From contig AP014719.1 of the NCBI GenBank assembly GCA_001549895.1, positions 124,001 through 188,000 of the forward strand: a DNA stretch of 64,000 nucleotides, given 5' to 3'. The DNA is from Arthrobacter sp. Hiyo8. GTDB lineage: Bacteria > Actinomycetota > Actinomycetes > Actinomycetales > Micrococcaceae. Within the stretch, counting starts at the first letter, position 1. The number at the start of each line of letters is the position of its first letter. The position numbers were made by a program, and so were the translations under genes. The notes below the pieces were generated by a model. The model worked only from the letters and a program-made list of their open reading frames with translations, ran no database searches and had not been told where the DNA came from. This document shows positions 584 to 28,377 of the stretch, in pieces.

Positions 584-606
584 CCCGCAAGATCCGACCG
601 TGGATC

Positions 607-632: not shown

Positions 633-684
633 GTTCGGGGCCTCACGGCCCCGACGGGTGATACCTGGAGAGCACAGAGGAAGT

Positions 685-721: not shown

Positions 722-892
722 CTTCGTCTCAGTGGACAGCTCTTTCATGGACTCTTTCAAGTCCTATCAGATACGCATTGCCCCATCGTATCCGAGTGGG
801 GAGAATGGTATTCATCGCCTTTCGCATCACCTATCGGGGTCATGCGACACGTCATTCAGTCTCTACTCACTCCGATCCAGAAAGCGCGTACC

Positions 893-3698
893 ATGCCTCT
901 CCTGCTCGACGACATCGATCTCACCACGGTTCAGGCCTCGACCAAGACCGTGGACCCCAAGTTCTTCTCCTCGAAGCTCACCGGCAACGGCAAGCACAAG
1001 ACCGGCTGCTCCACAGCGAGCTGCGCCCCGCCGACAAGGCCGGCAACACCGCCTACAGCGCTCTGGCAATCGACCACATCACGAAGAAGGCCAGCACGAC
1101 CCAGCACGGCATCACTGTCGTGTCCCTGCCGTTTGCGCCGCTGTTGCGCAGCGCGCTGACCGAGGCCGGCGGCTCGTTCACGATCGCGACCCCGCAGGCT
1201 GGCGACCGCTGCGTCATCGAGACCGGCTCGAACGACTGGGACGTGTTCTTCGACATGACACCGCAGGGCGCGAAGCTCTTCGAGGACGCCAACGGCAAGT
1301 CCAGCACCGGCGGCACCGCCATCTCCCGTGACTTCATCGTCCAGTACCGGATGGAGCTGTTCTTCGTGAAGAAGGGCACCGCGGAGCCGGTGCGTGTGCC
1401 GATCGTCTCGGCCACGACGGGTCCCCGCAACCACGACGCGGCCGTATTTCTCAATTGGGACACCGACCCCATGGGCCATGCTCACGCCTACATCGTCGAG
1501 GTGCTCCGCGCCGCGGGCCTGACGCACCAGAACCCTGATGCCCTGGCCGACTGGCTGACGAACGGCTTCAACGTCCACGATCGCATCGCCTGGCAGGCCG
1601 AGATCTGGGACTCCGAGGGCATCGCCGATGAGGTGAACGCCTACATCGACGGCCTTCCGTCGAACCCGGCGGACCAGCAGCTCAACGCGCTTGCGCTGCA
1701 GCTGCGGTACCTGGAGACGTACAACGTCCCGCTCGAGGCCTACCGCTCGATCCACAAGAAGATCGAGGGGTGTTCTCCGAGGGCATCGCGGCGGCGCTCT
1801 CCAAGCAGAACCTGAATCTGCTGATGAGCCACACCCTCTCGCACCTCGAGAACATGAAGCCCCAGCTCAACACGCCGGCCCAGCCGTCGACGCCTCCGGC
1901 GCTGCGTCCGGAGCTCTCGCACCAGCAGCTCTCCGGCGTCACCACGCATGAGCCTCTGGTGATGATGCAGGCCGGTGCCGGCACTGGCAAGAGCTCGGTG
2001 ATCCTGGAACGCATCAAGTACCTCGAGGCCTGCGGCGTGCCGGCCTCGGACGTCACCGTCCTGTCGTTCACCAACGCGGCGGCCGACAACATCACGGCGA
2101 AGAATCCGAACGTCGGATCGATGACCATCGCCCGGATGATCAACGACATCTACAAGCTGAACCACCCGACGCACGAGCTGTCGAGCATCGACACGATCAT
2201 CAACTCGATCGACATCTTCTACCCGACGGACAACTTCGCTGCTGGGCTCCGCATGCGCCTGGTGGAGGTCGCCCAGAACAAGACGGGCGCGTTCACCTCG
2301 CTGAACACCTACATCGAGAACCACTTCGACGAGATGATGTCACTGCTCGACACGATCAAGCAGACGTCCCTCGAGCTGGAGATCATCATCGCCTACCAGC
2401 GGATCGACTCGATGCAGGAGCCGGCCCACGTGCAGAGCAAGTACCTGATCATCGACGAGGTGCAGGACAACTCGATCTTCGAGTTCATCTACGTGCTGAA
2501 GTACATCACCAAGCACGCACAGTCCCTGTTCATCGTCGGCGACGCCAGCCAGACCCTGTACGAGTTCCGCTCGGCGAACCCGCGCGCGCTCAACACACTG
2601 GAGGGCTCGGGGGTCTTCTCGACCTTCAAGCTCACGACGAACTACCGGTCGAACCAGGAGATCCTGGACTTCGCCAACGTCGTGCTCGGCGACCTGGAGA
2701 CCAACCAGATCGCCGGTATCCAGCTGCAGGCGAACTCGCTCGCCGTGCCGACGGCGAAGACCTTCCAGGAGAAGGTCACGCTCGACTACCGCGCGGTGCC
2801 CAAGCTGCGCGGATTCGTCAGCGAGGAGCTGTCGGGCATCGTGATGCACACGATCTCCCGGTACGTCGACGACTGCCTGGCCCGCGGTGAGCAGGTCTGC
2901 TTCCTGGCGTACTCCCGCATGGAGGTCGCGATCATCCAGCAGGCGCTTCAGCAGAAGTACCCGCAGCGGCACATCGCCTCGCTCGTGAGTGAGAAGGTCT
3001 TCTCGACCGACATCTTCTCGAAGTACATCAAGAACTTCTGGAACGATGTCCTCCAGGTCCAGCCCGCCAACGCCGCCTTCGTGGTGGTCCAGGGCATCAA
3101 GGACAACCTGGACAAGCTCACGCGCAACGCCGGAAACAAGAAGGTCGAGCAGGCCGTGCTCCGCATGGTCTCCAAGTGGTGGACCGAGAACGCTCCGGCT
3201 ATCCGTGGCTGGGAGCAGCTCTGCATGCAGGGCTCGCTGTCCTACAAGGAGTTCTTCGAGCGTCTGCGGGACAACCTGCTCTCGTTCGAGATCCGCCACA
3301 ATGCGGTACGGCAGAGCCTGACCAACCAGGCGAACCGTGAGCGCAAGGAGAAGAACGCCGAGTCGGGTGCCGATCTGCTCGTCTCGACCATCCACGGTGC
3401 CAAGGGCATGGAATTCGACAACGTCGTGATCCTGCACAAGGAGGACACCAAGATGTCGCAGGCATCGCGACGCGAGTTCTACGTCGCCTTCACCCGCGCC
3501 AAGAAGACGGAGTACATCCTCTCCTACGGCACGGTGAAGAACCCGCCGATCGAGTCGAGCTATGAGCAGATCGTCAACCTGCTCACCAAGCGCGACATCC
3601 AGAACGCCGCGCGCGCCGCCGGTGTCGACCCCGATCTTCTCGACGAGGAGACCGAGGACACCCTCAAGAAGGACGCGGCGGCGCTCGTCACCGCCTGA
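893..3698 (+). CDS. UvrD/Rep-type SF1 DNA helicase with a novel N-terminal domain
   Basis: ATP-dependent 3'-5' DNA helicase of the UvrD/PcrA superfamily, about 935 residues once two frameshifts (near 1010 and 1770, each cured by one base) are repaired. Visible motifs: Walker A AGAGTGKSS (about residue 365), motif II IIDEVQDN (about 520), motif III VGDASQTLYEFR, motif IV NYRSNQEI, motif V STIHGAKGMEF (about 832) and motif VI YVAFTRAKK (about 863). The first 300 residues match no helicase domain I recognise. They could be a separate protein, since a start near 1824 or 1857 would give a helicase-only product. I prefer the fused form because the frame break sits in a G-run and the repaired join reads smoothly. 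It may process DNA during transfer or replication of the element. A strong hairpin follows at once. Confidence 0.85.
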
Positions 3699-7149: not shown

Positions 7150-7497
7150 TCAGAACTCGAAGCCCGGGTCCAGCTGGTCCCGCAGGTCGCGCTGCTCGAT
7201 GTCGACCGTCTCGGCGTCCTTGATCGTCCGCCGGATGGTCTTTGCCGACGTCGCCTCGTGTTCCTCTTTGACCGCCTGCTGTTGCTCGGCCCGAAGGCGG
7301 GCGTCGTTGAGCTTGCTCCGATATTCCGTGACCCCCGACATGAACCCCTTCACGAAGGCCTTCGCTGCCGACTCCGGCCGGTGCTGGAGCTGCCGGGCCT
7401 GCTCCCACTTCTGACGGTCCTCGACCGTCACGAAGCCGAAGCCACCGGCGACCTGGGACTCCCGAGGGAGTCCACCCTTCTGCTGCTGACTGCTCAT
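7150..7497 (-). CDS. hypothetical protein, last gene of the polymerase operon
   Basis: 115 residues, not recognised. The start is a Ser/Gln-rich lead (MSSQQQKGG), followed by FGFVTVEDRQKWEQARQ and a long charged helix (residues about 55-105) likely to form a coiled coil. It ends in DQLDPGFEF. No membrane segment is seen. The ATG lies five bases beyond the stop of the gene at 7503-8107, so the two are cotranscribed with the RNA-polymerase-like gene. GAAGG upstream is a fair ribosome site. It could be a small partner of the polymerase or of the preceding protein; the sequence alone does not say. Confidence 0.7.
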   Translation of the reverse strand: MSSQQQKGGLPRESQVAGGFGFVTVEDRQKWEQARQLQHRPESAAKAFVKGFMSGVTEYRSKLNDARLRAEQQQAVKEEHEATSAKTIRRTIKDAETVDIEQRDLRDQLDPGFEF

Positions 7498-8107: not shown

Positions 8108-9858
8108 GTCCTCGTCCTTCCTTCGTCATTGGTGTCATCCGGCTCATGGCTGGTATTCGTGATCGTCGGCCGGCTCCGGGCCGGCTTACCGCCTGGCGGC
8201 TCTGCTGCTGGCTGGCTGCGCCCCTCTCGCGTGATGCCCACTCGTTGTAGGCACCGACCGGATCAGCGGCCACCCTCGTCGAGAAGTGCCCGAACTTCTC
8301 GCCGTACTGTGCATGCCACGCCTGTGCGAACTCGGGATACGACTCGTTGACCGCATCCAGAGCATCCATGTAGGCGAACGAGTACTGCTGGCGCTGCTGC
8401 TCCGCGCTCAACCCGTCCGCGGTCATGGTGGCCTGCATCGTGCGTGCCTGGAAGAGCCGTTCCGGCATCACGCCGGGCAGCCCCTCGCCGTCAACCTCCT
8501 GAACACGGCCATGCAGCCGAGCATGTAGCCAGCCAGGTCCTGGTTGAAGGCATTCATGTCACCACGGGCCGCGGCCTCCGACATGGTCATCGCCATGACC
8601 CCGCCCATGCGTCCTTGTGCTCCTCGGCACCCATCTGCGACCGGAGCGTGAATGCGCCGACCACTCGCGGTCCGTTCGGCGTGTCCTGATACCGGGTCGG
8701 ATCCACGGGCCTGCCCGTGTAGGCCTGGTAGTCACCACGCCAGACACGCTGCACCCGATCCGTCCCGGCAATCCGCTCCTCGTGCGGAGGGGACATGCGC
8801 TGGGCACCGTGGCTGAAGCCATCAACCATGACCTGAACGCGAGGGTCCTCACGCATCCGCTCGCCAGCACGACCCGGGACGACTCTGCGACTTCCTCGCG
8901 GGTCAGGCCGTCCTCCTCGCACTGCCGGTACAGACGGCTGATCATGGTGTTGTAGCTCTCCATGATCTCTTCAGCCTGTGCACCGGGCTGCCGGAGCGCC
9001 GCGAACGCGTTCTCGGTGAGCGCGACCTCGGTCATGCCCGCCGAGCGCGGCGTGAACATCTCACGATGCCCACGCTCGCGGAACTTCAGGTCGTCATAGC
9101 GCTTCTGCCACCGCTTCGACACGTAGTCTTCGACCCGAGCCTCCTTGAGCAGCTTCTTGCCCTGCGTGGCACGCAGTTCGTTCTGCTCCGGATGCCCCGG
9201 TTCCGCCGGTCGGCCTGCCCCGCGGCCCAGTCATGCGTCTTCTGGGCCTTCTGGTCGATCCGTTCCTGGATAGAGGCCTTGACCGGAGCGGCCTTGTCCT
9301 TCACGACCTGACGGAACGTCGGCGACATGAGGTACATCGCCGAGAGCGTCGACATCACCCGGACCACGGAGGCCGTATTGACGCCCTCCTGCAGCGGACG
9401 CATCGCGCTCGTGACCATCATCTGACCGTAGACCCGGTGCATCGCGCTGAGCTTTTCAGTGCGCTCGTTGTCGTTGAACCCGGCACGAGGATGTCCGACT
9501 TCCGCAGCGACTCCATGTACTGTTCGCCGGCGGCCTGGATGTTCTCACGGAGCAGCTTCAGCTCGTCCCGCTCGCTCAGATCCTTGCGATCGTTCATCGC
9601 CTTGCGGGCCGCCGCGCGGCGGCGCGACTGTTCATCGCGCCGCCGCTGGGCACGGGTGTTGAAGAACCCCCGTGCCTGCTCGCCCCAGCCAGGGCCAGAT
9701 GACTGGTCTTGATCGACCTCCCACCACTCGGCATCGATCGGCGGCTCAGTCCGTGCCGAGCCGGAGTACTGCGGGTACACCGGCTGAAGCACGAGCTCGC
9801 CCGTCACCGGAAGCGACTTGCGCCCGCGTCCGGCACCCTGGTTGTTGTCATCCGCCAT
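8100..9858 (-). CDS. hypothetical protein of about 585 residues behind the RNA-polymerase-like gene
   Basis: The gene is broken by about five one-base frameshifts (near 9480, 9200, 8880, 8590 and 8505). Joining the pieces gives one protein from MADDNNQGAGRGRKSL to a basic tail ending KEGRGHG. It is rich in helices and Met, Gln and Arg: a charged region (residues about 55-120, TRAQRRRDEQSRRRAAARK), a hydrophobic helical patch around MVTSAMRPLQEGVNTASVV, and further helices with NEWASRERG. No known motif is seen. The start is 43 bases after the polymerase stop, so both belong to one operon. A structural partner or cofactor of the polymerase is an inference from position only. Confidence 0.6.
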
Positions 9859-9901
9859 GTCTCTCAGCTCCCCATCTCGTAGTCGGTGTCCGAGTCCGTG
9901 T

Positions 9902-12900
9902 TCACGGCTCGATGTCGATCGACGGCCGGTAAGTCTGCGCCGTCGTGCCTGCCTGTCGCGTGGATCCCACGACGACTGCGTGCTGCGACCGGCGACGGTC
10001 GCCGCGGGCCTGCGCGCCGATGTGGCTCTCCGCCATGACATCCCGCTTTATCAGCGTGTCGGCGATGGCCTGCTCGGCGCTGCGCTCCTGGCCCAGGTCC
10101 TGCAACTGCTCTGCCGAGAGCGTCCGCGCACGACGGGTCGGAGCCGAGCAGAACTGTTCGTTCTTCTCGCCGTCGTAGAGGTTCTCGTGGTTGTCCGCCG
10201 CGGCGATCAGGTCCTCCAGCGTGCCTCCATAGGCCATGCGGTCCATCAGCGAACCCTGCAGTGACGTGTCGACCTCCAGGTTGCGCACGCGTCCCGACTT
10301 CGGATCGGCAAGAGCCTTTGCCACCCGCTCGACGTACTCGGGGTTGACCGTGACGTTGAAGCCGTCCTTCGCGTTGTAGAACTCGATGAACTGCGCCGCC
10401 CACTGCTCCTTCGTGGCCTGCACTGCCTCGCCATCCTCGAAGACCGGACGCCACTGGCCCGGGCCAAGGTGCTCGAGCAGACGCCCGCGCCACAGATCGC
10501 GTCCCGGACCCTGGAGCATCTCGTACTTGTGCTTGGCCTCGCTCGCGTCGTGCTTTGCCTGGAGAATGCTCTGGGTGACCGGATAGGTCATCTCGAGCAC
10601 GGCCTTGAGGTCCACGTTCCGCAGCGCACGGACCGCTCGCTGCGAATACGAGCCGCCGAGACCGGTGCCGTGGGACTTGATCGCGGTAGCGAACATCGAC
10701 GCCTCCTGGTCCTGCTGGTTGATTCCGGAACGGCCGCTGCGTCCGCCGAGGTAGCGGGCGTAGTCCATGAGCTTCTCGCGATTGCCCTTGGCTCCGGTGA
10801 CCACGCAGACGTCGCGCACGCTGTTCAGGTGCGTCTGCAGGTCATCGAACCGCAGCGCCGTTCCGAACTCGTCGCGCTGGGCGTAGCGGTAGAAGTCGCC
10901 AAGGCGGCGCGCGATGTCGGCTCGCGCTTCGCGCTTCTCCGGGCTGTCAACACCAGGAGCACGCTGTGCTTCGTTCGCCTCGGTCTGCAGAGCCGCCACA
11001 CCGTTGGCGAGGAAGGGGTCCTTCGACACCGCGACCTGCGTGTCGAGCGAGACCTGCATGGCCAGCGGGTGCTCGCCGTTCTTCACGACGCCCGTGTCCA
11101 GCAGGTTCGCCGGCACGGAGAGCTTCTCCATCGCCTCCTGCTTGGCCGCCTCGCTGTGCAGCTTCACGACCGCGACCGCGTCGCCGTCGAAGTCGCCGTC
11201 GAAGCACTGGTCCATGACCGGGTTGATCGCGACGCCGGTGAGGCGCTCGTCGATCGCCACGCGCATGTAGCGCAGGCCCGCATCGCGCAGCACCGGATCG
11301 CGCCAGATCAGCGCATGGTCGCCTTCGGCGAGCCCCAGCTGCTCGGCCATAACCGGCGACAGCGCCACCTGGTCGATGTCCAGTCGCGGATCCGCGGTCC
11401 ACACGGCCGTAGCCGAATCGGAGAGCCGCGAACTCATGAGCCCGGACTTGAAGGCGTTGTGCTTGCCGGAGAACACGCGCTGCTCGAGGTCGGTCGTGAT
11501 CGACTCGAACTTCCGCTGCGCATGCGACGCCGCCTTGCTCATCTCCTCGGTCAGCTCCTGGCGCACGCGCTGCGTCACCTGGCCGGCCGCGAGCTTCTCC
11601 TGCGCGGCACGGTACCGGCAGGCCTGCTCGTGGATGTCGAGGTAGCGGTTCGTGTAGTCGTGCGTGACGGAACTGCCGTCCTCGAACTCCTGACCGGAGC
11701 GAAGGTGCGAGGAAAGCACCGGCATCTTCCACGACGACGCCGTGACCTGCTCGGTCTGTTCGCCGGTGGGGTACTTCAGCGGGAACGGGATCTCCAGGTC
11801 ACCACCCTTGTCTCCGATGAGCTGGCCGAAGGTCTTGCGCATCGTCGAGATGAGCACCACGCCCTTCTCAGTGCGCGCGAGCTCAGGCATCGGGAAGAAG
11901 CGGCGCTCGGGCCGCTCGTCGCCGGCGTCATGGCTCAGACCCGTATGGTCCTCGTCGCGGCCGACCACGCGCAGCGTACCGTCCGATTCCATGTCGAGCC
12001 CGACGCTGAGCATGAACTCGCGCAGATTCGCCTCGGCTCCGCTGTTGTGACCATAGAACTCGCGCATGATCGCCGGGCAATCCTGCGCGCCGAGCGCCCA
12101 GGCCAGCTGCGAAGAAGCCTTCCGGCCCTTGCCGGAGAGCACAGCCTCGTCGTCGTAGACCTTCGTCTTCTCGTCGACGGCCATGTGCGTGACGATGAAG
12201 CGCATCTGGCCGATAGCACAGTTCGTCGTCCCGCCGCTCGGGTGCTGCAGATCGGAGCCCATCAACTTGTCGGCAGCCTCGGGCTCGACCTCCTGCGGAT
12301 CCAGACCCGCGGCAACGGCAACCCGGACACGCTCCCGGTCCTCCGCCAGCGTGCCCATCAGCTCCCGTCCTGAACCGGCGTTGCGGCGCGAGATCAGCGA
12401 GAACGGGCTCATCACCACATCCATGTCGGGGTTGGCCTTGAACCAGGCCACCTCCTTCTCCAGATCCAGCGCCTCGGCCTCCGCAAGCGGCCTGTCCCTG
12501 TCAACGACCAGCGACACGACGCCCTTGTTGCCGTGCAGGTCCGAGAGCTTGTCGCCGACCACGAGGGAGCGCAGCTCGCCGCCGACACCGCGGATCTGGT
12601 TCGCCTCGGCGAACTCGCGGCTGATGACGATCGGATCGTCGGCAGTCCACCCGCCGAAGGTCATCATCGCCGTACCAGTGGGCGTCGTGATCTTGGAGGA
12701 CTGCATGAGCGTCGAGGCCGTCATCTGCTCGCGGTCGAACGGATCGAAACGCAGCGTCTCCAGTTCCGGCCGGTTCATCAGCGGCGCACGCGCGCCCGAC
12801 AGCACAGCTGGGTCGCCCGGGACGATCCGACCATCGGGGGAGACCTGGGCGTCCTGGGTGAGGTAGCGCACGATACCCTGGTTGGTCGCTCCGCCGGTCA

Positions 12901-15501
12901 TCACCGGGTCGAAGTAACCGGCAGGGGCTGCGATGCCGTTCTGGTCGGTGCCCGTGAGCACAGCCATGTTGCGGCCACCGGTCAGCTTCCAGGCATCGAA
13001 GTGGTTGTCGTCGGCGGGGTCTGCCTCGCTCTTGGTCGCCTGGTGCTCGGCGTACACGGTCGAACCCTGCTTGATGCCGTTGCTGTACCGCACCCGCTTC
13101 GCCTCGGTCGCCAGGATCGACGCCGTCCACGAATCGAGCTGGCCCTCGGCATCCAGCGAACGCTCGATGAAGTCGAGCGGGTGCTTCGTGCCGTACAACT
13201 GCGAGTACACGCGGTTCAGGCTCGAGCCCTCGCCGGCCTCGCTGCGGTTCGTCAGGAGGTCGTTGGCGATCTGGTACTCGATGCGCTCGGTCATCGCCTG
13301 CTCGTAGCCGCGCAGCAGCGTGCGCTCCTCGACAGTCTTCGTCTCACCGGGCAGCTGGGCCGCGATGCGGGCCTCGTAGCCGGGCACGATGAGTCCGTTG
13401 TCGCCGCCGACGAATCGCGTCACGATCTCGCCGTGCTCGCCGACATCGAAGACCTGACCGATCTGGCCGGTCACCTCTGAGGTCGAGCCGTTGCGGCGCA
13501 TCTTCTCCGCCGTCCAACGGATGACGCCCTGGTCGTCGATGAGCACCTCCGTAGGCTCCGTGGCGTTGCGTGCCAGGCTGACCCAGACGGTCTCGCCGAT
13601 CCGGCGGATGAACGGAGATTCGTGCGTGTCGATTGGCGTCGCCCTCTGCTCGTCGAAGCGAACGAGGCGGTCCTTGAAACGGTCGGTCTGGAAGCCGACA
13701 CCCATCATCTCGCTCGGATCGATCTCGGCACGGCGGAGAGCTGCTGCCAGATCGTCGAGGTTCGACCACTGCCCCTTGGCACTGGTCATGAAGCGGGCAA
13801 CGCGCATCGGATCGAAGCGCTGGTCCAGCATCTCGTCACCGACAACACGGATCTCCGGCTCCCAGGTGCCCACAAGCTCGTCGAGCACTTCGTCCGCGTG
13901 TGCGCGCACCGTCTCTTCCGGCGTGCCACCGTAGACGAGATTGCCGGCATCGAGCGACTCGCTGCCGTCACCGACCTGGAGCTCGCCGATCATGCCGAGG
14001 CGCTCCTCGTACATCTCCTGGGTCGCGCCGGGGCGCAGCAGGTGAGCTCGCTGTCCGACCAGGACGTCCCAGTAGGATCGCAGGATCGCAGCAACCTCGG
14101 GTCGCTGGAGAGTGCGGGGATCTCGAACTCGACGATGTTCAGGCCTTCGGCACGCTGGTCCTCGAACGAGGCGAGGAGCCCGTCGACGTCGAGAGAGGCC
14201 GCGAGATTCTCACGCGCCGTCCGCACGGCCGTGGCCATGTACTCTTCCGCTGCCGCCCGACCGCCCTCGGTGGGGTTGTAGAACTCCGGAAGCGTCCGCT
14301 CCTTGCCTTCGCGGCGGAGCATCACCAGCGAACCTTCACGCGGGCGCTCACCGGGCACGCGGTACTCCTTCACGGCGAACATCGAGTCCTTCGCGCCGTG
14401 GTAGTTGTCTTCGACCTCCGTAGGCTCGAGCGGGCTCTTCGCCGTAGTGCGGATCATCTCCGTGTGCGTCGGGCCAAGCGTCCCGGCAAGCAGTTCCGGC
14501 CGGTCCTGCCGTGCCACGGCCTGGCCCTGCGCAAAGCGCAGGAGATCCACGGCCTCGGCGGGCGTGGGGGAGTAGACCGCCGCGTCCTTGCCGACCTTGT
14601 GGTTCGTGGAGTAACGAACGATCGCGCCGTTGTCGTAAATCATCGCGCCGGCGTAGTCCTCGCGCTCACGCGGTTCGGTGAGACGGATCTCCATACCGGT
14701 GCTGGCGATCCGGGCCTTGAGCTGACCAGGGTTCCGGTCGCGCAGCACCTCGTAGTCGAGGCCCTGGGCCTGCAGCTCATGCAGCATCGCCAAGGAACGC
14801 TCGAGTGCCGCCGTGGACATGAAGCGGTTCCGGTCGATCCGATTGGTGCGCGGGTCGCGTCCTCCGTCGATCGCCCACTGGCGAACCTGCTCGTACTCCT
14901 TGACGCTCATCGAATCGCGAAGCGCGGTGAGGCCGGAGGCGTCCTCGTCGGTCATCGCCGGTCCTGCCTCGATCATCTGCCCCTCGGCGTCGACGACCCA
15001 CAGCATCATCTGCCCGTGCTCGCCATCGGCGGCCCGGCTCGTCTCGCCGTCGAGGATCTCGGTGATCGTCTGATCCGGGAGATACGCCAGCGACGTGCCG
15101 ACGTTCTTGACCGTCGCTCGCTGCGACCACTCCGGATCGTAGGGGCTGATGGGCAGAGCCGCAGCACCCTTGGCGTGCTCACCCAGGCCGACCTCGCGCA
15201 TGAACTGCGCCTGCAGCCGCTGGAAGAGCGGATCCGCGCCGGCGTACTCATCGAACACAGCCTCGGCGCTTGGCACCGACTCCTGGATCGAATCATCCAG
15301 CGCGGTCAGCAGAGCGGTGACGCCCAGCCGGTGGTCGGCCACCGACATCCCCTGCTCGGAAAGACGCTCATCCATCCGCTGGCGGATCCGCTTGGCCTGG
15401 GAGATCGGGATGACCTGCCCCGTCTGCTCCCGCGCCTGTCGAATGGCCTCATGCGTGACGTACTCGTAGAAGTACCGTCGCAGGCCGTGTCCCTTTTTCA
15501 T
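9902..15501 (-). CDS. single-chain RNA polymerase: fused beta/beta'-like catalytic core
   Basis: After one frameshift near 14,060 (one C restored) this is a chain of about 1,866 residues. Residues 950-1140 follow RpoB: an acidic pair in TADDPIVIS (where RpoB has E-D), GDKLSDLHGNKGV (about 982), then DVVMSPFSLISRRNAG, then a RpoB-like C-terminus with KGRKASSQLAWALGAQ. Residues 1290-1630 follow RpoC: FSGKHNAFKSGLMSSRLSD, WRDPVLRDAGLRY, the metal-binding GDFDGDAVAV (about 1434), TGAKGN (about 1567) and a trigger-loop-like GLGGSYSQRAVRALRN (about 1615). Both double-psi barrels therefore seem complete. No zinc-ribbon cysteines of RpoC are seen. The first 900 residues are not recognisable. GGAGG lies nine bases before the ATG. 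The tail ends TYRPSIDIEP. It is related in principle to YonO-type one-chain polymerases but about twice as long. No sigma, alpha or omega gene is nearby. Activity is inferred from the retained catalytic residues. Confidence 0.9.
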
Positions 15502-15550
15502 CTTCTATCGCCTCCATTGGAGTGATCGGATCATAACTGTCATATAGATC

Positions 15551-15560
15551 CTATCCGACC
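15551..15560 (-). promoter_or_regulatory. recurrent motif site 4 (GGTCGGATAG on minus strand)
   Basis: About 50 bases before the polymerase start. CATTCGGAAT lies just upstream of it (15,561-15,570) and TAGGAT overlaps it. Confidence 0.5.
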
Positions 15561-15635
15561 ATTCCGAATGAGGCCAGAAATGGGATTAATGCGAGTCGAG
15601 GGGATTCCGAATCGCAGTCAGGCCGCCCAATACAG

Positions 15636-15680
15636 CAGCACCGCGCGACCGGATCGGGTCACGGGGGTCACGGGGTGCTG
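15636..15680 (-). terminator. hairpin after the coupling-protein gene
   Basis: Stem CAGCACC / GGTGCTG with an imperfect GC-rich interior, 15 bases beyond the coupling-protein stop. It separates that gene from the polymerase operon. Confidence 0.5.
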
Positions 15681-15694
15681 TCATTCCTGCTCGA

Positions 15695-18600
15695 TCAGGC
15701 GTCGCGGAGCATCTCCTGGGCCATCGCGCGGTCGAACGCTCCGTCAGCCAGGTGCTCCCACGTCGGCAGCGAGGCCAGGAACTTGTAGAAGTGCGCCGAG
15801 ATCTCCACCGTCGCCAGCGCCTGCAGGCCTTCGGCGTTCAGCTCTTCGTCGGCGTACACCCGCGAAGCGTCGTCCTCCGCCGCCGCGTTCAGCTTCGCCG
15901 CGGCCTCCGTGAACGAGGCCGACCGCGTGGGCGTGATGTACGCATACGCTCCGTCCGCGCTGCGCAGTGATCCGTCGCCGCCGACCGAGAAGTTGTCCCG
16001 GTCCTGCTGCAGCTCCGTCAGTGCGGCCTTATATCCCTCGGTGAACTGGATGTCCAGGCTCTTGATCTTCGCCGCGCCAGACGGCGAGACGAGCATGTCC
16101 TGGCTGATCGTGCCCTCGGCGTAGATCTTCCGCGCCTGCTGCGCAGCCAGGGCACCCTTTTCGGCGACCGCCGCGGCGACCTCCACGTTCTCCACGACCT
16201 GATCCTCGTCGAACATCATCGCCGAGGCGAAGTCGTCGGAGTCCACCTCGATCGGTGCATGCGGGTCCCTGCCTTCCTTCACGTTCGCCAGCATGTGCAC
16301 GATCTCCATGACCGCATCCGCGTAGGTGTCGGGTCCAGACGGGCGATGTCGACGTCCTTGTAGCCGTAGCTCTCCTGGTAGATCGTCTTGGCGTTGGCCG
16401 CGTGCACCGACTGCCCCAGCCTCTTGTAGAACATCTTCTGGAAGTCCGGCTGGTTCATCCGCACATCGAACTCCATCGCCGAGCTCAGCGTCGGGATCGT
16501 CTGCAGCGAGTAGTCGTTGCCCGGGTGGATCATCTTGGCGTCGGTGCGCAGCAGCTTGTACGACATCGGCAGGATGGTCTCGTTCCTGTTCCAGACCGGC
16601 GCGTCGCCGGCACGGAAGACGATGCTGTTGCGCTCGGGGATGAACGCCATGTTGTTGTATTTGATCAGCGGCTCTTCCACGGTGCTCTTCGTGTACGAGA
16701 CCGGCCCTCCGTCCGGCCTCCGATCATCTTGTCGAGGTCCTGGCTGATCTGCTTCGAGTCGATGTAGGAGACGTGAGTCTTTCCCGACATCTTCTCCAGC
16801 GTCTCGATCATCGAATCGTCGGTGCTCTTCAGGAACACGATGTTCGAGGTGTTGCCCTGCACGATCTTGTCGACCGATTCGCCGTAGACGTCGCGCAGCT
16901 GCTGGAGGGTCTGCAGGATGAGCGTGAACTGCTGCTCCTGGCCGAGGCCGATCGAGAGCATCGTCTCGAAGCCGGAGATACCCTTACCCTCCGACTGCAG
17001 GTTGCCCAGCTCATCGAGCATGTACCGGGTCCTGTAGAGCGGCTTCTGATTGCTCTTCGTCATGTAGGACTGGTCGAACGAGACGTCGACGAGCTGCTTG
17101 ACGAGAATGAGCACCAGCTTGGCGTACTGCATCAGGTGCGGCGGCGTCACCAAGAACACAGCCTTGGGCGACTCGCTGTAGCGGACCATCGTCTGCGTGA
17201 TCGCACGCAGCTCGCTCGTGACCCGCTCCGGCGCACCGCCGGCGGAGAGGTCGAGGCGCTCTTCCTTGTACGTCGTGTCGCCGGGCTTGTACCCGGTGAT
17301 CGCCCGTCCCGCTTGCCGCCCTCTCGCACCGGACGCAGCTCGCGCAGTACGCCGTTCTTCACGATCTTCTTGCCGGTGACCGGCTCGATGACGTAGTGCC
17401 GGCCGTTGAGCGAGAGCTGGTAGCTCTTCTGGAAGTGGAAGTAGAACGAGCGCACCAGCATCTTCGTCTGCGGGTTGATCAGCTCCAGCTTGAGCCAGGC
17501 CTCGTCGCCGGGGAAGATCCCCTTGAAGTTGTAGCGCGCCCAGCCCTCTCGGCCCACGATCTCCTCGTGGTCGAAGTCCTCGCCCAGGTCCTCCTGGAAC
17601 ATCGGATCCCTGTACGCCGACCACACGGCCTGCTTGCCAATGAGGTGGTCGCGCTTGACGTAGTTGTTCGCCAGACGCACTCCTAGGCGACGCGGGAAGG
17701 ACAGGCCGGCAAGGTCTGTGTTCTGGGACGGCTTGCCCGAGGTGAGCGTCGAGATCGTCGGGTCAGTGAAGAAGCTCATGCCGGTGATGGCGATGCCGTA
17801 GACGCTCGCCAGCATCTTCTCGGCTCCGGCCATCGACCGAAGGGCGTTGTGCGCGTTGCCAATGAGCGTGCGCATGCTGTTCATCGGCAGGGCCTCGGTC
17901 GCGTTGAAGTAGAGCGTCAGCATGTCCTGCTCGGCCTTTCCCTCCCACAGGAACGCCTGACGCTGCGCTTCCGCCTGAGCTTCCTCCAGCTCATCCTCGC
18001 GGTCCTCGAATTCGCCTGCCTTGACCTTCTTCTCCAGCTCGGCCTCGGGGTTCTTGACCTTCTTCGAGCTCAGCTGCACAAACATCTGGTACGAGTTGTA
18101 GAGCGTGACCTTGCCCCACATGTCGTCGAGCTTTTGCTCGAGCGTTGCGGGGTCCATCTTGGTCTCCGCCGCGTGCTTGCGCAGCTCGCGCTCTTCCTCC
18201 ATGTAGAAGTCGATGAGGCCGTAGAGGATGCGCTTGAACGCGTTCGACGCCGCATTGGGCCACACCGGATCCTCGCCGCCGTCGGTCGGGAAGAAGACCT
18301 CGGCAATGTTTCCGACATACAGAGCAGCCTTGGTCATATCACCCTCGCGCGCCTTGTCGGCAGCCAGACCCAAGGGGTTGTAGATGTCGGTCTTCATGCT
18401 GTTGATGAGGTTGAACTGGACCGGCTCGAATCCGCGCATGACCAGCGGAATGTAGTTGTTGACGAGCAACTCACCCTTGGGGTCGTTGATCACCATGTTG
18501 GAGGCTTCTTCTCGCGCGACCAGATGTCGATCATCGGCTCGATGTAGGTCTGGCCCTTTCCGCCTCGGGTGATCGCGAGGACCATCGTGTTCACCGGCGC

Positions 18601-19743
18601 GGTGTCCACGATGTATGCGCCGCCGGGACGCTGGATCTCGTAATCCGGGAACGTCCAGTCGTTCTTGATGAGGTCGGCCACCGTGCCGTAGCCCTTGTCC
18701 GGACCCTTGAGCTTGTCGCGGTTCGCGTTCCCGGGTTGTACGGGATCTGCGTCGTGTCCCAGCACTTGCGCAGTGTCTTGTCATCGGGGACGCCCGAAGC
18801 CTCGAACAATGCGTCGCCGAAGGCCTCGTCGATGATCGGCTGCAGATCCGAGAGGATCTTGCCGTCGTCGTCGACCATCGCCTCGCCCTTGTAGTAGACC
18901 ATGTTGCCGTCCTGATCGATGATGTCCGCCTCCGCCCGGCGGGACACCTCGACATTCTGCAGCCCCTTCCGCTTCAGCATCATGTGGCTGATCATCGAGC
19001 TGACCTGCACGTCTGAGTGCGCGCCGGCGTCCGGGAACCAATCGAACTTGCGCTGGATCTCCTCGGGCAGCGCGATGTGCTGATCGTCGTCGTGGAAGTT
19101 GATGTCGGAGTCGTCATGCATAAGGTTCGCGGTGTCGACCCGCTTCGCCGACCACGCGCTGATCACGACACCGACCAGCAGGCCCAGACCCACCGTGACG
19201 AACAGCTTGAAGAGCGTGACGTCGGCCAGCTGAGCCCCCAGGCTCGTGGTATTCGCGGCAGGGGCCGCCTTCGTGCCAGGCTTGATGACCTCACCCTGCG
19301 GAGCCTGCTTTGCCGTGTACCAGTCCGGTACCGGCACGTTCGCGATCTCCGGATAGCACGTCCCCTCGGGCTGTCCGTTCGAGGCGAGCTGCTGGTAGCA
19401 CTTCTCGACCGCGCCACCCTCGACCGTCCGGGTCGACTCCAGATAGTACTGCTTCGGGCCAGTGCCCCACCGGTGCCTGCGCCGTTGATCGCCCCGGTCA
19501 GCCCCATCAGTGCCATGGCAATCACCGAGTACAGGATCCAGGCGAGGAGCGTGACGACCACGTCGACGACGATGCCTACGACCAGGCCGGCGTCTTGGAC
19601 TTCTTCATCTGACGGACGCCGCGATCCAGCTGCTGTGAGCCGTGCACGTCCCGGTTCGTCAGCGTCTGCCCGGCATCCCGAGCTGAGATCTTGTCCCAGC
19701 TGCTTGCCGAGGGTCGCTGTGCCTTCCGCTTCTCTCGCGCCAT
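15695..19743 (-). CDS. type IV secretion coupling ATPase (VirD4/TraG family), very large
   Basis: DNA-pumping ATPase that links the relaxase-DNA complex to the secretion channel. Repair of about seven one-base frameshifts gives about 1,350 residues, roughly twice typical VirD4. Order: basic cytoplasmic lead (MAREKRKAQRPS), a membrane helix (VVGIVVDVVVTLLAWILY), an outer loop of about 90 residues with two Cys, and a second membrane helix (LFVTVGLGLLVGVVISAW). Then come Walker A ITRGGKGQTY (about residue 391), NDPKGELLVNN, an inserted charged helical region, and Walker B MLDELGNLQ (about 911) with SIGLGQEQQFTLILQT and NIVFLKSTDD behind it. The acidic/helical C-terminal 300 residues are extra and may bind substrates. 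GAAGGAG supports the start. The left-hand neighbour gene is the polymerase. Confidence 0.9.
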
Positions 19744-19779
19744 GATGCGCTCCTTCGTTCGTCTGTCCGTTAATGCGGA

Positions 19780-19830
19780 CGACGACGGTGCCCGGGGAAC
19801 GTCTCGCGTATCCGCCGCGCACCGTCGTCG
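19780..19830 (-). terminator. hairpin between coiled-coil and coupling-protein genes
   Basis: 12-bp perfect arms (CGACGACGGTGC and its complement) with a 27-base loop, within the 132-base gap. No motif site is present here, so it may be a partial attenuator inside one long transcript. Confidence 0.5.
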
Positions 19831-19875
19831 CTGTGTGCTGTGTGTTCGCCCGCCGCCGTGACGACGGGCCATTGA

Positions 19876-21958
19876 TCAGAGGAGGATCGCTCCGGCGATG
19901 AAGCCGGCACCGAGCATGACCAGCCCGATCGCGATCATGAGCGTGGTCAGCAGCTTGTTCTGCCGGCCCTGCATCTGGTTCGACCGCTCCAGATCGTTGA
20001 TGTACGCCTGGCGGTCGGCCTGCAGGTCGTTGACCCGGTCGTCGTATTGCTTCTTGAACGACTCGCCCATGTGGTCCATCTGCGCGAGCAGATCGGTCAC
20101 GCGGCTGGTCTGTGACGCGGTCTTCTCCTTCTCCAGGTTCAGGTTGTGCTGCCACTCCTCGTCCCGGACCCGCATCTGCTCGATCGTGGACTGGCGGGTC
20201 TTCTCGAACTCGTCCTCGGTGCGGCGCAGGCGGTCGGTGTGCTCGGTACGCAGACGCTCGACGATCTTCGCGTGCTCCTGCTCAAGGGCCGCGACCCGGT
20301 CGAAGCGCGACTGCTCCTCGGCCAGGGCATCGGCGCGGCTGATGTCACTCTTGCGGTTCTCGTCGATGATGCGCTGGATCTCGCTGGTCAGCTCCACGAG
20401 CAGTGCCCGCTCGGCCGCGAGGTTCTCCTGCTGGCGCTCTGCGAGTACCGTGAAGATGCGGGTCGTGCCAATAGCCATGCGGCGATCGGCATCCTTGCGG
20501 CGCAGCCCGAGGATCTCCTGCTGCGTGTGGGCGTAGTCGTTCTCGATCTTCGCGTCGATCGCAGCAACAGCTTCGAGCTGCTCGCGCTGGATCTTGGCCT
20601 TGTTCCGTTCGCGGTACTGGACCTCCGCCTGGCTTGCCGCCTGCTGCCCAATCTGGGCAATTGCCGCCTCGAATGCCTTGGCGATCTCGGCCTGAGCCTG
20701 GCGAGCGGTCTCGTCCTTGCCCGTCAGCGCCTCGCGGTACTCGACCTTCGCACCGGTGGTCAGCTCCTTGTAAACGCTGCCCTCGCGGTCGATCGCCACG
20801 TCACGCATGACCTGCTCGGCATGCAGGCTCATGATGTTGACGAACTCGGTCTGCAACTCGGCCTCACCGTCCGCGTGCAGCTTCGCCAGCTGCGCGTTCG
20901 CCTGGCGGGTGAGCTGGGCGATCTGATCGCCGAGCCAAGAACTCGCACCGTCCGGGACAGCGATCTGCACCGTCGGCGCGGCCACCCCGAACGAGGTGGC
21001 GAACTCGTCGAGGCGCACCTCCAGGTCGAGATCCTCGGTGAGAAAGCGCCGGGCGATGGTGCTGCGCACCTGCTCCTGATCGGCCACGGCTCGTCGTCGA
21101 CCGGTGCGGTCTCCGAGGACCCCTGAGGGGCGTAGTCGTCGTCTTCGTCCTCGTCGTCGAAGATCACCGCGTGCTCGTGCTGGGCGTCCTCGTCTTCACC
21201 CTCGACATCGGTGTGCTCCTCGAACGCCGGAGCTTCAGCATCCTCGTCTGCGGTCTCGCCGAACGCATCGCCGAACGCCGGCTCCTCGTCGAAGTTGACG
21301 TCAGCATCGGAAGCACCCTCGAAGAGAGGATCGCCCTCGTCCTCGGCATCCGGAGCGGCCTTGATCTTCGCCGGCTCCACATCCCCTCGGCCGTCGGCTC
21401 GTCGTCGGTCTCACCGCTGTGCGCCGCCCATGCCTCGCGGCCGACGGCATCCTTGAGCGCGATCGAGCCCGTGGAGACACCGAGCGCCATCGCGAACGTG
21501 GCGTCCGCGACCAGATCGACCTGCAGGCCGTTCTGGTTCTGGTAGACGACCGCCCAGCTGTAGAGCGGCGTCTTGCCGTCAGCGGCCGTCGGCGCGGTCA
21601 GCAGCGAGTACTCCTCCATGCGCGCGAGGGTCTCGGTCGTCGGGATGATTCCGAAGACCTCCTCGGAGAGCATGTCGGCGGTTGCCAGCGTGCAGATCGA
21701 GTCTGCCTCGATGAGTTCGATGAGCGAGCCCTTGGCCTCGTCGCGACCCTGCTTGCGGCTCAGTCCGCCGATCCGCTCGGCGGCGAGCACCAGGATGGCC
21801 CAGGCGGTGCCGCTGGGGAAGACGAACGGTGCGTTGCTGCGCAGCAGCTCAACGGCCGCGGGAACCGCGGTCTCACGCACGACCGATGCCAGGAGTTCAT
21901 CCGGCTTCTTCTGCCGCTCCTTCTTCTCAGTCTTCTTCGGTGCTGTCAGAATGCTCAT
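19876..21958 (-). CDS. tail-anchored coiled-coil protein with acidic linker
   Basis: About 694 residues after repair of frameshifts near 21,375 and 21,085. Three parts are visible. The N-terminal region (about 190 residues) is globular and unrecognised (FVFPSGTAWAILVLAAERIGG). A very acidic linker of about 100 residues contains FEEHTDVEGEDEDAQ and AVIFDDEDEDDD. A long coiled coil of about 300 residues is rich in Gln, Glu and Arg. One membrane helix closes the chain (LLTTLMIAIGLVMLGAGFIAGAI). The protein is therefore cytoplasmic and anchored by its C-terminus. A separate GTG start at 21,087 is possible if the linker and coiled coil are two genes. It may be a scaffold at the secretion site. Motif site 5 lies upstream. 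Confidence 0.7.
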
Positions 21959-22021
21959 GCCTGTCGATCCCTTCGGTTGTGAGTCACGATTCGCCTCGTT
22001 TATCAGAATAGTCTGTCGTGC

Positions 22022-22055
22022 ATATCGAATGCAACAATCAAATGATCTATCGAAT
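22022..22055 (-). promoter_or_regulatory. recurrent motif site 5, double (ATTCGATAG and ATTCGATAT on minus strand)
   Basis: ATTCGATAG complements 22,047-22,055 and ATTCGATAT complements 22,022-22,030. Both lie upstream of the tail-anchored coiled-coil gene and just after the previous terminator. GACTATTCTGATAAA follows toward the gene. Confidence 0.6.
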
Positions 22056-22115: not shown

Positions 22116-23878
22116 TCACTGCATCGTGAAGACCATGACGTGTGCGTCAGATGTCCGCAGATCCTTCCGGTCGCTGACCATCTCACCCTCGATGTCGATT
22201 CCGATCCGACGCTCTGCCGGGAACTGGTTGATGAAGGTCGCAACCTCCGTGGTGACCTCGCTGGTCAGCCTGGCCACAGCCGCACGCGCACCGCCGGCAT
22301 CGGAGTCCGTGTTGCCGCGGTCCTCGATCAGGTACTGCAACACGCGGGGATTGATCGTCACGCGCACGTTGTGCTTCACGTGCACTTCCTGCACCAGCTC
22401 GCGCAGCTTGTTCTTCACGATCTGCTGCTGCGTCGCCAGCGACAAGGGCTGGAACGGGACGATGGCGTCGATTCGGCCCAGGAGCTCGGGCGGGAAGCGA
22501 TTGTCCGCCTGGGTCTTCGTGATTGAGCGCCGGATCAGCTTCTCGTACTCCATGAGCTCCTTGCCCGAGCCGGTGTCGTCGGGGCGTAGTCAGCGATCGT
22601 CTTGTAGACCTCGGAGGCTGCGTTCGTGGTGAGCACGATGTACGTGTTGAGGAAGCTCACCTGCCGGTTGTTGTCGTCCGTCAGGCGGCCGTCATCGAGC
22701 ACCTGCAGCAGGAGTCGCGTCACCATCGCCGAGGCCTTCTCGACCTCGTCAATCAGCACGACTGCGTGCGATCGGTCCCACACCCGCTTGGTCAGCTCCG
22801 AGCGGAACAGCTGCAGCGAGGAGTCCTCGGCGAACTCGGACATGTCGAAACGGATCAGGTGGCGCTGGTCGTCGCCGAAGAGCAGCTTGGCCAGCTGCTT
22901 GGTCAGCTCGGACTTGCCGACACCCGTGCTGCCCGTGAACAGCAGGCTGGCCATCGGCCGACCCGGGTTCTGCAGATCTGCCACCGAAAGCTGCAGGCGG
23001 CGGGCCACGGCTCTCGTGGCCAGATCCTGGCTGAGCACCTTCGCGTCGAGCTGCTGCTTGATCTTCGCGACGTCGACCTTGAAAGAGACGTTGACGTTGA
23101 GCGACTCCTGGAGCACGTCGGCGAGCAGGTCCCTATTCATCGACCGCCCCCGGCGGTGCCAGCCGACCATCGCGTTGAGCACCAGGATCGACTTTCGCGG
23201 CTGCGAACTCGCCGGCATGTAGCGCTCGGTGTACTCGTAGATCTGACGGAAGAGATGATCGTCGACGAACTGTTCGGCCACGCCATAGCGCTCGGCCACA
23301 CCTTGCAGGATCGTGATCGTCGTCTCTCGTCCCGGCTGGGCCAGGCTGATGCGCTGAAGGCGCTCGACCAGTGGCTGGTTTGGCGCGATATGCATGTGGA
23401 ATTCGTCGTAGGTCGTCGCGGCGATCACCCGGATTCCCCTGGTGCCCGATGCCGCCAGCACCGGCTTGATCGCCTCGACCGCGGCGTCCGAAAGCTGCAC
23501 GATCTGGTGGAACTCGTCGATGAACAGTACAAGTTCGTGATCTTCGTGCTTGACGTACCGCTCCGCCTCGTCGAAGAAGCCCTTGAGCGTCGCGGCCATG
23601 AGATTGCTGTCGCCGGCCTCGGAGATCATGCGCGCCGGGTCCACCTCAAGATAGAGACGCTTGTGGTCCTCGAGCATCGTGGCCTGTACCAGGGCTGTCT
23701 TACCCGAACCGGCTTCTGCGAGCAGGAGGATATTCGACAGCTCGGGTCGCTCCATGCCCGCCAGCACCTGCTGGATCTCATGCTCGCGGCCGACGATCTC
23801 ACGTTCCGCCGGCTTCAGCGGTTCGGACAGTCGCGCCAGCAGGGGGTAGTTCTCATTCAGTCGGGCATCTGCGAACAT
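22116..23878 (-). CDS. double AAA+ Hsp100/Clp-type unfoldase lacking the N-domain
   Basis: About 587 residues after one frameshift near 22,580 is repaired. First AAA+ domain: AEAGSGKTA (about residue 55), FIDEFHQ (about 116), AATTYDEFH. Second domain: GSTGVGKSEL (about 318), LIDEVEKA (about 379), LTTNAASE, arginine finger ELLGRIDAIVPF (about 465) and a sensor-2 helix. This is the ClpA/ClpB plan, but the protein starts almost directly with domain 1: the usual Clp N-domain and the ClpB middle domain are missing. No ClpP-docking loop is evident. It probably remodels element proteins rather than serving general proteolysis. AAGGAG lies nine bases before the ATG. It is a monocistronic unit with motif site 6 upstream and a terminator downstream. 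Confidence 0.9.
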
Positions 23879-23944
23879 CCGTGATCGCTCCTTCGTTCCA
23901 TTCGAGTTCCATTCAAAGATCAGTCGAATCCTATCACGATAGAC

Positions 23945-25281: not shown

Positions 25282-25851
25282 CTAGCCGACGGCCAGCTCC
25301 TCGTCCTCGAATAGCGGCACGTCGGTGCTCTGCTCGGGAGCCTCCGCCTGCGCCTCGGCGGCGGGAGCCTCCTTGGCCTGGGACACCTTTGCGGCGTCGG
25401 CGGCCTCCTTGGCTGCCTTCATCGACGCGAACTGCTGGTCCATCGTCTTGCTGTCGACCTTGAAGTCGGACTGCTCGAGGGACTTGGTGTTGAGCACAAG
25501 GCCGTTGCCCTTGGTCGACGGCATCACGTTGGCCTTGACGGCGTAGATGCGGCCGATCTCTTCGCCGTCCTTGTTCGTGATGGGCTCGAAGTTCGGGCCG
25601 GCGGCCTTGACGATCTCCTCGAACTGGCCGGTGCTGTAGGCCGCACCGTTGTTGTAGCGGGTCTTGCCGTCGCTGTCCTTCACCCGCTGGGAGGTCAGGT
25701 GCAGGTTGGTCTGCGCCGGACCGCGCTGGTCGCGGGCGTCGATCTGGGCGTCGACGAAGCGGAACTTGCCGTCCTTGGTCACGCCGTTGTCGTAGACCTT
25801 CGCGAGAAGGTTGACGCCGGTCATCGACCCCGGACCCCGAAGCTGTGCCAT
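25282..25851 (-). CDS. small conserved element protein with acidic tail (possible DNA-binding)
   Basis: 189 residues, intact. Residues 1-125 are beta-rich (GVNLLAKVYDNGVTKDGKFR, RIYAVKANVMPS) and recur in the gene at 24,021. A helical Ala-rich segment follows. The chain ends in STDVPLFEDEELAVG. A short acidic C-terminal tip after a flexible linker recalls the layout of single-strand-binding proteins, but no OB-fold signature is certain. AAGGAG lies seven bases before the ATG. The 155-base gap to the relaxase gene holds motif site 7 and an inverted repeat. Probably an abundant protein, given its own promoter region and terminator. Confidence 0.7.
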   Translation of the reverse strand: MAQLRGPGSMTGVNLLAKVYDNGVTKDGKFRFVDAQIDARDQRGPAQTNLHLTSQRVKDSDGKTRYNNGAAYSTGQFEEIVKAAGPNFEPITNKDGEEIGRIYAVKANVMPSTKGNGLVLNTKSLEQSDFKVDSKTMDQQFASMKAAKEAADAAKVSQAKEAPAAEAQAEAPEQSTDVPLFEDEELAVG

Positions 25852-25874
25852 GATCTGTCTCCTTAATTTCGTTG

Positions 25875-25899
25875 CCCGACTCGATTGACGAGTCGGTAC
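25875..25899. promoter_or_regulatory. inverted repeat upstream of the 25,282 gene
   Basis: CCGACTCG-ATTGA-CGAGTCGG, 8-bp perfect arms, about 35 bases before the start codon. Could be an operator or a 5' stem. Confidence 0.45.
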
Positions 25900-25992
25900 T
25901 GATCTGTCACATTCGCTTCTGGGCCATTCGACTCATCCGCGAATGATCCAAAGACTAATACTGAATAGAGTCGAAAGCAACTCTGAATGGTG

Positions 25993-28300: not shown

Positions 28301-28333
28301 GCCCGTCCCTCCTGTCCCGCTGATCGATTGAAG

Positions 28334-28377
28334 ACAACGGCCCGACGGTGGGATCATCCACGCGCCGGGGCCGTTGT
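28334..28377 (-). terminator. hairpin between the 28,409 gene and the relaxase
   Basis: 10-bp arms ACAACGGCCC / GGGCCGTTGT. No motif site lies between here and the relaxase start, so read-through is likely. Confidence 0.5.

What the first reader, a model, noticed from the sequence alone, without database searches (positions are those of the whole stretch)
9902..15501. A conjugative element encodes a one-chain beta/beta' RNA polymerase
One gene (one frameshift at 14,060) holds RpoB-type motifs (DDPIVIS, GDKLSDLHGNKGV, MSPFSLISRRNAG, then a RpoB-like C-terminus) followed by RpoC-type motifs (SGKHNAFKSGLMSSRLSD, GDFDGDAVAV, TGAKGN, a trigger-loop-like helix). Both double-psi barrels and the metal-binding Asp triad seem intact, so it is likely active. 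At about 1,866 residues it is far longer than YonO-type phage enzymes, and it sits next to a relaxase and coupling protein. Why would a transfer element carry its own polymerase? Possible answers: transcription of its genes independent of host sigma factors, transcription of incoming DNA, or primer synthesis.
Basis: partly seen in the sequence, partly recalled or inferred. Interest (0 to 1): 0.95.

Follow-up and report, generated by a model that had tools for sequence, protein, structure and literature searches.

The report
An RNA polymerase carried by conjugation
A family of transferable DNA elements in Gram-positive bacteria carries, inside its DNA-transfer gene set, a gene for a one-piece protein with the motifs and predicted fold of an RNA polymerase; it likely travels with the DNA into the new cell and would start making RNA there, as some phages do with an injected polymerase.

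Summary

The gene belongs to a transfer module (MobL relaxase, Clp-like ATPase, coupling protein, RNAP) in Actinomycetota, with the same order on Staphylococcus plasmids. It follows the coupling-protein gene in 29 of 30 loci; both genes occur in the same 4 of 61 genus genomes.

New here: Staphylococcus-type RNAPs and their MobL relaxases share a C-terminal hydrophobic-acidic-hydrophobic tail (18 of 26 and 24 of 41, against 6 of 314 other genes). I infer that the RNAP is exported with the relaxase and acts in the recipient, a conjugative counterpart of virion RNAPs. Activity and export are untested; the actinobacterial relaxases seen lack that tail (0 of 7). Mobile-element RNAPs have been named in print; my searches listed no paper giving this role.

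The parts
9864..15501 (-). Single-chain two-barrel RNA polymerase gene (as sequenced, broken near 14,100 and near 9,905)
   Evidence: ORFs; relative matched in three pieces; Pfam; full-length relatives
13990..15501 (-). N-terminal piece (503-aa ORF; about 467 residues align to relatives); part of a 660-residue region with no PDB match at E <= 0.001
12497..12640 (-). Beta-like barrel motifs DDPIVIS and GDKLSDLHGNKGV
   Evidence: Pfam PF00562; positions; profile match to beta subunits
11126..11470 (-). Beta'-like barrel: SGKHNAFKSGLMSSRLSD, WRDPVLRD, DFDGD (11,180-11,194)
   Evidence: Pfam PF00623; positions; fold match
10622..10702 (-). Predicted bridge helix (ASMFATAIKSHGTGLGGSYSQRAVRAL)
   Evidence: position; helix 946-977 of the model; assignment by alignment and recall
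9867..9905 (-). Conserved C-terminal tail VNTDSDTDYEMGS, in another frame in this assembly
   Evidence: tails of relatives
15508..15568 (-). Conserved promoter-like and leader stretch upstream of the RNAP gene; promoter function not shown
   Evidence: alignment of 32 upstream sequences; scan; sequence
15695..19869 (-). Coupling protein (VirD4/TraG type), broken into several frames
   Evidence: Pfam PF02534; tblastn with relatives
19876..22036 (-). Unknown protein of about 690-715 aa, module member, broken
   Evidence: no Pfam match in the L004 and L070 copies
22116..23896 (-). Clp/ClpB-like double AAA+ ATPase, module member, broken
   Evidence: Pfam AAA_2 E 6.9e-33, AAA, ClpB_D2-small (below its cut-off)
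25282..25920 (-). Module member of about 180-225 aa between relaxase and AAA+ gene
26007..28361 (-). MobL relaxase
   Evidence: Pfam PF18555 E 6.3e-95
8211..9861 (-). Unknown protein (573 aa in G448) next to the RNAP gene, broken
   Evidence: present in 30 of 30 loci
7150..7497 (-). Small protein (p121 family); most orthologues end in hydrophobic-acidic-hydrophobic
33607..34599 (-). Tail-lysozyme-like protein (PF18013), likely cell-wall hydrolase of the transfer set
1770..3698 (+). UvrD-like helicase of the same element
   Evidence: Pfam; relative

Best explanation
The gene encodes a one-chain protein with the motifs and predicted fold of a two-barrel RNA polymerase, belongs to a MobL / Clp-like ATPase / coupling-protein transfer module of integrative and plasmid-borne conjugative elements, and is likely exported with the relaxase so that it would transcribe the incoming DNA in the recipient before the host's polymerase does. 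Shown by calls: the motifs and fold match, the fixed gene neighbourhood in Actinomycetota and its counterpart on Staphylococcus plasmids, co-occurrence with the coupling protein, purifying selection, the missing beta flap, and the shared C-terminal tail of relaxase and RNAP in the Staphylococcus branch. Inferred: that the tail is an export signal read by the coupling protein, that the Clp-like ATPase unfolds the cargo, that the enzyme is active, starts without a host sigma factor, and works in the recipient. The model is a conjugative counterpart of the virion RNA polymerases of phages N4 and P23-45.
Against: No activity, export or expression data exist. The tail pattern was chosen after seeing the first plasmids; on the 37 close MobL proteins whose tails had not been seen, it fits 8 (20 by the looser pattern, which was set later). 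Sequences within each set are related, so the counts are not independent. On TUM20888 neither RNAP nor MobL fits the pattern. In the window's own branch the relaxase tails seen do not fit (0 of 7, one of them an ORF fused to the next gene; five more do not fit either), and the RNAP tail is of another type (looser pattern 4 of 120; 1 of 30); there it sits on p121 (23 of 28). The G448 element also carries a D5-like helicase (DUF5906), so other replication genes could serve the recipient.
Confidence: 0.5

Rival explanations
1. The polymerase stays in the cell that makes it and transcribes element genes from its own promoters, so that the transfer genes do not depend on host sigma factors (the phage non-virion RNAP model, as for YonO or P23-45 gp64).
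For: Beta flap missing; the element is large (about 59 kb shared by two genomes).
Against: The one conserved promoter-like site found lies in front of the RNAP gene itself; scans of 11 loci, the G448 element and the window gave weaker second sites only (best 16.8 in L023 against 22.8 for the RNAP site). It does not explain why RNAP and relaxase share a tail. The scan used a site from the RNAP gene, so a different promoter class would have been missed.
Confidence: 0.28
2. The enzyme makes RNA primers for complementary-strand synthesis on the transferred single strand in the recipient (a stand-in for the primases of other conjugative elements).
For: PMC5512222 (section 18) says that primases of conjugative elements are transferred and prime the incoming strand; export by the shared tail fits this as well as the best explanation.
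Against: An 1,848-aa enzyme with bridge-helix and trigger-loop-like parts is much larger than primers need; the G448 element carries a D5-like helicase that could belong to a primase-helicase.
Confidence: 0.14
3. A catalytically dead or structural relic kept for a role in the transfer apparatus.
For: No activity known; the N-terminal 660 residues match no PDB entry at E <= 0.001.
Against: Metal-binding and lysine motifs near-invariant over 146 proteins and strong purifying selection.
Confidence: 0.05
4. The window copy is a decaying pseudogene.
For: Frame breaks in this and several other module genes of the window.
Against: The genome's rpoC is split too, and dN/dS against the intact relative is about 0.08-0.14.
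Confidence: 0.03

Closest known systems
[quoted passage not shown]
   Same: Mobile-element two-barrel RNAPs; PMC7824862 (passages) says that these lack the SBHM insert (flap) of the beta barrel, as here. The present family may be part of what those words cover.
   Different: Whether NCgl1702 itself belongs to this family was not tested; the passages seen give no gene neighbourhood, relaxase tail or conjugation role.
Virion RNAP gp96 of Thermus phage P23-45, fused to the tape measure protein (PMC10770324, passages and section 12)
   Same: The best single-sequence PDB match of the window ORF is 8h2n_A, 'Tape tail measure protein', 821 aa (E 8.9e-5), which I take for a gp96 fragment from its name and length; single chain, two barrels; by that paper it transcribes as the DNA enters.
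   Different: Sits in a phage tail protein; here the gene stands in a conjugation module. In the profile search the 60 rows shown are cellular RNAP subunits.
YonO of SPbeta (PMC5467207, passages)
   Same: Single-chain two-barrel RNAP of a mobile element.
   Different: 839 aa; profile comparison gives no match (probability 0.2%); phage, not conjugative.
Cellular RNAP beta and beta' subunits
   Same: Motifs, and extended fold match of the beta'-like half.
   Different: One chain, no beta flap, very low identity, a long N-terminal region without a PDB match.
Primases transferred by conjugative elements (PMC5512222, section 18)
   Same: Nucleic-acid polymerase placed with T4SS genes, transferred with DNA.
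   Different: Unrelated folds; [quoted passage not shown]

Membership tests
Two-barrel RNA polymerase superfamily | DxDxD metal motif in a beta'-like double-psi barrel | tested here: met
Two-barrel RNA polymerase superfamily | Beta-like barrel with two conserved lysines | tested here: met
   GDKxSDxHGNK in 144 of 146; PF00562 over cut-off; profile match to beta chains. By sequence; the fold search barely tested this half
Two-barrel RNA polymerase superfamily | RNA synthesis | not testable with these tools
   needs purified protein
YonO-like RNAP | Sequence relatedness to YonO | tested here: inconclusive
   hhalign probability 0.2%, single YonO sequence against profile A5; absence of a match does not exclude distant kinship
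NCgl1702-like mobile-element RNAP | No SBHM (flap) insert in the beta-like barrel | tested here: met
   spacing 20-25 residues in 142 of 146; alignment to beta skips about 120 residues
NCgl1702-like mobile-element RNAP | Sequence kinship to NCgl1702 | not tested
   sequence not at hand, meant to reach that order of genomes, was not accepted
Virion RNAP (injected with DNA) | Polymerase delivered into the recipient cell with the DNA | not testable with these tools
   only indirect: tail shared with the relaxase in the Staphylococcus branch
Virion RNAP (injected with DNA) | Encoded in a phage with virion genes | tested here: not met
   conjugation genes beside it; scan of viral contigs with two peptide patterns found none
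MobL-type conjugative element | MobL relaxase and VirD4-type coupling protein | tested here: met
   PF18555 E 6.3e-95; PF02534 over cut-off
T4SS substrate | C-terminal export signal shared with a known substrate (relaxase) | tested here: inconclusive
   shared tail in the Staphylococcus branch, not seen in 7 actinobacterial relaxases; that the tail is a signal is not shown

The most novel reading that the evidence does not exclude
Gram-positive conjugative elements inject their own RNA polymerase: a C-terminal tag common to relaxase and polymerase sends both through the coupling protein, a dedicated Clp-type unfoldase threads the 200-kDa enzyme, and the polymerase starts sigma-free transcription of the entering strand, so that the element is expressed in the recipient before host defences or host RNAP can act. 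Phage virion RNAPs would then have a true conjugative counterpart.
Probability: 0.4. Interest if true: 0.93.

Novelty: new variant of a known kind. Interest (0 to 1): 0.76.

Why it matters
How a conjugative element is first expressed after entry as single-stranded DNA is usually answered with host RNAP (my own knowledge). A polymerase that is a fixed part of a transfer module found in two phyla, with a tail like the relaxase's in one of them, makes a direct test possible: does the enzyme cross? It also adds a large family of two-barrel RNAPs without the beta flap to compare with QDE-1, YonO and phage enzymes, and gives a candidate C-terminal export signal for MobL-type secretion systems.

Tried and rejected
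An element-wide promoter class for the RNAP: a scan with the conserved site in front of the RNAP gene gave weaker second sites only (the matrix was built from 19 of these upstream sequences, so the RNAP sites match by construction); a sigma-70 and terminator scan of window 15,400-15,800 found nothing, with about 0.1 of each expected. Shared tail between RNAP and relaxase in actinobacterial loci: not found; the 201-aa protein of L027 (the G448 element) ends like its RNAP (score 45 against a background mean of 17.8, sd 5.0), one case that I did not build on; L016 and L029 show scores of 41 and 40 with other proteins there. YonO kinship by hhalign: none seen. Solved structures for the N-terminal 660 residues: best E 0.19, so a new fold is possible but not shown. 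The VIA list shows largest subunits in its 50 rows; beta chains, QDE-1 and crAss-like gp66 are not among them, which excludes nothing. PHROGs: P0001 best E 0.0011 (RNA polymerase beta subunit), the Staphylococcus RNAP E 1e-6 with a family of unknown function. Phage records: short RNAP-core matches (best E 5e-6, Salmonella phage Arash). The 'Yono' matches in two Clostridium papers were an author's name. Literature: (open-licence library only) listed no paper that I recognised as describing an RNAP in a conjugation module; listings only, apart from the papers cited. Iyer et al. 2003 is not held; Iyer and Aravind 2012 was seen only in a reference list. In one search, 17 of the 18 genomes with a match have only short weak matches (E 1.9e-4 to 8.4e-4), which I take for host rpoB/rpoC and did not count.
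Full report
What is there. On the minus strand two ORFs, 13,990-15,501 (503 aa) and 9,902-14,014 (1,370 aa), together make one gene. A relative of 1,848 aa (P0001) aligns to the own genome in three pieces at 92-95% identity. The frames meet near 14,100, and the last 13 codons lie in a further frame, 9,867-9,905. ORFs are also short in other stretches of the genome, a weak comparison. Between window 12,211 and 12,356 this copy carries 87 more bases than G448, a multiple of three.

Two features matter for mechanism. First, the beta flap is gone: 20-25 residues separate two beta motifs in the 142 of 146 proteins where both were found, where the C. difficile beta chain has about 120 residues more between the aligned stretches. 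[quoted passage not shown] Second, the N-terminal 660 residues fold confidently (pLDDT 88, pTM 0.67) and match no PDB chain at E <= 0.001.

Where it sits. In 30 genome loci found with two peptide patterns, the Clp-like ATPase, p688, coupling protein, RNAP and p579 are present in 30 of 30 and p121 in 28; the coupling protein precedes the RNAP on the same strand within 600 bases in 29 of 30, the exception (L038) being a locus whose RNAP ORF is itself split. In 61 genomes of the genus, RNAP (E <= 1e-10) and coupling protein (E <= 1e-60) are in the same four and absent from the other 57. RNAP and coupling-protein distances correlate (Spearman 0.74 in 14 actinobacterial loci, Mantel p 0.0002; Pearson 0.97 over 21 loci). 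The family is rare and patchy: strong matches in 1 of 394 genomes of the class and 1 of 396 of the phylum, in both cases the own genome. Plasmids carry it: 13 of 72,556 records, in Streptomyces, Rhodococcus, Gordonia, Staphylococcus and Lactococcus. On the Staphylococcus plasmids SAP020A and pHD75-1_1 the order is MobL, small protein, double AAA+ (Clp-like) ATPase, further genes, coupling protein, two genes, RNAP (tables; Pfam); pAYP1020 and TUM20888 are annotated alike. No relative was found in viral contigs with two patterns. Selection is purifying (dN/dS about 0.08-0.27 in five comparisons; codons kept 468 of 468, 1,278 of 1,338, 1,486 of 1,844, 1,788 of 1,849 and 1,825 of 1,850 after masking poorly aligned windows). 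The G448 and window elements are alike over about 59 kb, from the left edge of the fetched flank to window 39,422, with gaps, and G448 has a tyrosine integrase gene at that right end.

The tail. In Staphylococcus plasmids the RNAP and the MobL relaxase end alike: KGFELEM and KDIELEL on SAP020A, KDVEMEMS and KDIELDI on pHD75-1_1, SGFDLEM and KEYEIEL on pAYP1020 (MobL identity of the first two). With the pattern fixed there, these two proteins are the only hits among 80 called genes of SAP020A and 78 of pAYP1020; among 66 of pHD75-1_1 (its first 6.8 kb not fetched) there is one further hit; on TUM20888 (65 genes) neither fits and one other gene does; on the Lactococcus plasmid pJM4A (94 genes) the RNAP fits with one further hit. 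On MobL relatives fetched afterwards that pattern fits 11 of 41 close and 0 of 21 distant ones, and 8 of 37 close ones once four whose tails had been seen are dropped. A looser pattern, set after seeing these, fits RNAP 18 of 26, close MobL 24 of 41, distant MobL 0 of 21, and 10 of 318 other genes, four of the ten being the plasmids' MobL genes, so 6 of 314. Two RNAP-MobL pairs that share a contig length end SGFDIEL/QSYDIEL and SAEIEL/RYSIDL. In the actinobacterial branch the looser tail is on p121 (23 of 28), not on the relaxase (0 of 7, one of them an ORF fused to the next gene) and hardly on the RNAP (1 of 30; 4 of 120), against 7 of 276 other tails; the actinobacterial RNAPs mostly end instead in a DYGMGY/DYEMGS-like way. 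So the shared-tail evidence is direct for the Staphylococcus branch and only by kinship for the window.

How it most likely works. The relaxase is carried through the T4SS with its DNA (PMC5512222, passages). A polymerase fixed in the same module, with a relaxase-like tail in one branch, is most simply a second cargo. PMC5512222 (section 18) contrasts phages, which bring virion RNAPs to transcribe at once, with conjugative elements, which send primases. This family would break that division. Transcription in the recipient without sigma would follow from the missing flap; the Clp-like ATPase beside the relaxase gene could unfold the cargo. These steps are inferred.

Regulation. A stretch upstream of the RNAP start is recognisable by eye in 31 of 32 aligned upstream sequences, L018 being different and L027 and G448 being the same locus. 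A matrix built from 19 of them has its best match in front of the RNAP gene in 10 of 11 scanned loci (not L028), in G448 and in the window; the next best sites reach 16.8 (L023), 16.2 (L016) and 14.7 or less elsewhere. It looks like the RNAP gene's own control site and not like a promoter class for the enzyme.

What is known and what is new. Two papers name mobile-element or plasmid single-chain RNAPs (PMC7824862, passages; PMC10770324, passages and section 12). The family may be the one meant; NCgl1702 was not compared. New here, as far as the searches listed under Tried and rejected show, are the conjugation module in two phyla, the relaxase-like tail, and the proposal of an injected conjugative RNAP.

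Noticed in passing
L070/L069 (G448) against window 16,852, 22,911, 23,700, 28,282 and 1,988; L004:9129-13424: G448 carries extra stretches of about 0.8-1.1 kb that the window copy lacks in the coupling protein, Clp-like ATPase, near the relaxase end and in the UvrD helicase gene; the L004 ATPase and the L069 helicase show homing-endonuclease domains, so at least these are likely inteins.
   Followed up: partly
window 22,116-23,896 and Staphylococcus plasmids L077:2305-4161, L078:2465-4339, L084:2496-4355: A Clp-like double AAA+ ATPase close to the MobL gene in both phyla, an unusual partner for a conjugation system and a candidate cargo unfoldase.
   Followed up: partly
G000:C1:3622273-3625982: The genome's rpoC is split into two frames, a sign of indel errors in the assembly.
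   Followed up: partly
L007:16959-24107 (Lactococcus pJM4A): A 2,382-aa relative on a plasmid with a CpaF/VirB11 gene; C-terminus ...VEIEMEV.
   Followed up: partly
gaps before the RNAP and coupling-protein genes in L009, L015, L016, L027, L035: GC-rich inverted repeats sit between the module genes, as read by eye; possible terminators that would separate RNAP transcription from the transfer genes.
   Followed up: no
window 24,702-25,151: A second, diverged copy related to the small gene between relaxase and AAA+ ATPase (matches of 33-47% identity).
   Followed up: no
window 40,477-45,434: MmeI-like methylase protein and a DEAD-helicase/T5orf172 protein just right of the shared element.
   Followed up: no
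window 5-3,698: Second Clp-like AAA+ gene and UvrD helicase on the plus strand at the element's left part; in G448 preceded by a VWA-like protein (below cut-off) and a dynein-type AAA protein.
   Followed up: no
L005 (Gordonia pGKT2): Several module proteins end in a similar ...GPELGA / EGLGA / GPEMSA / GPQLG tail, perhaps a lineage-specific form of the same signal.
   Followed up: no
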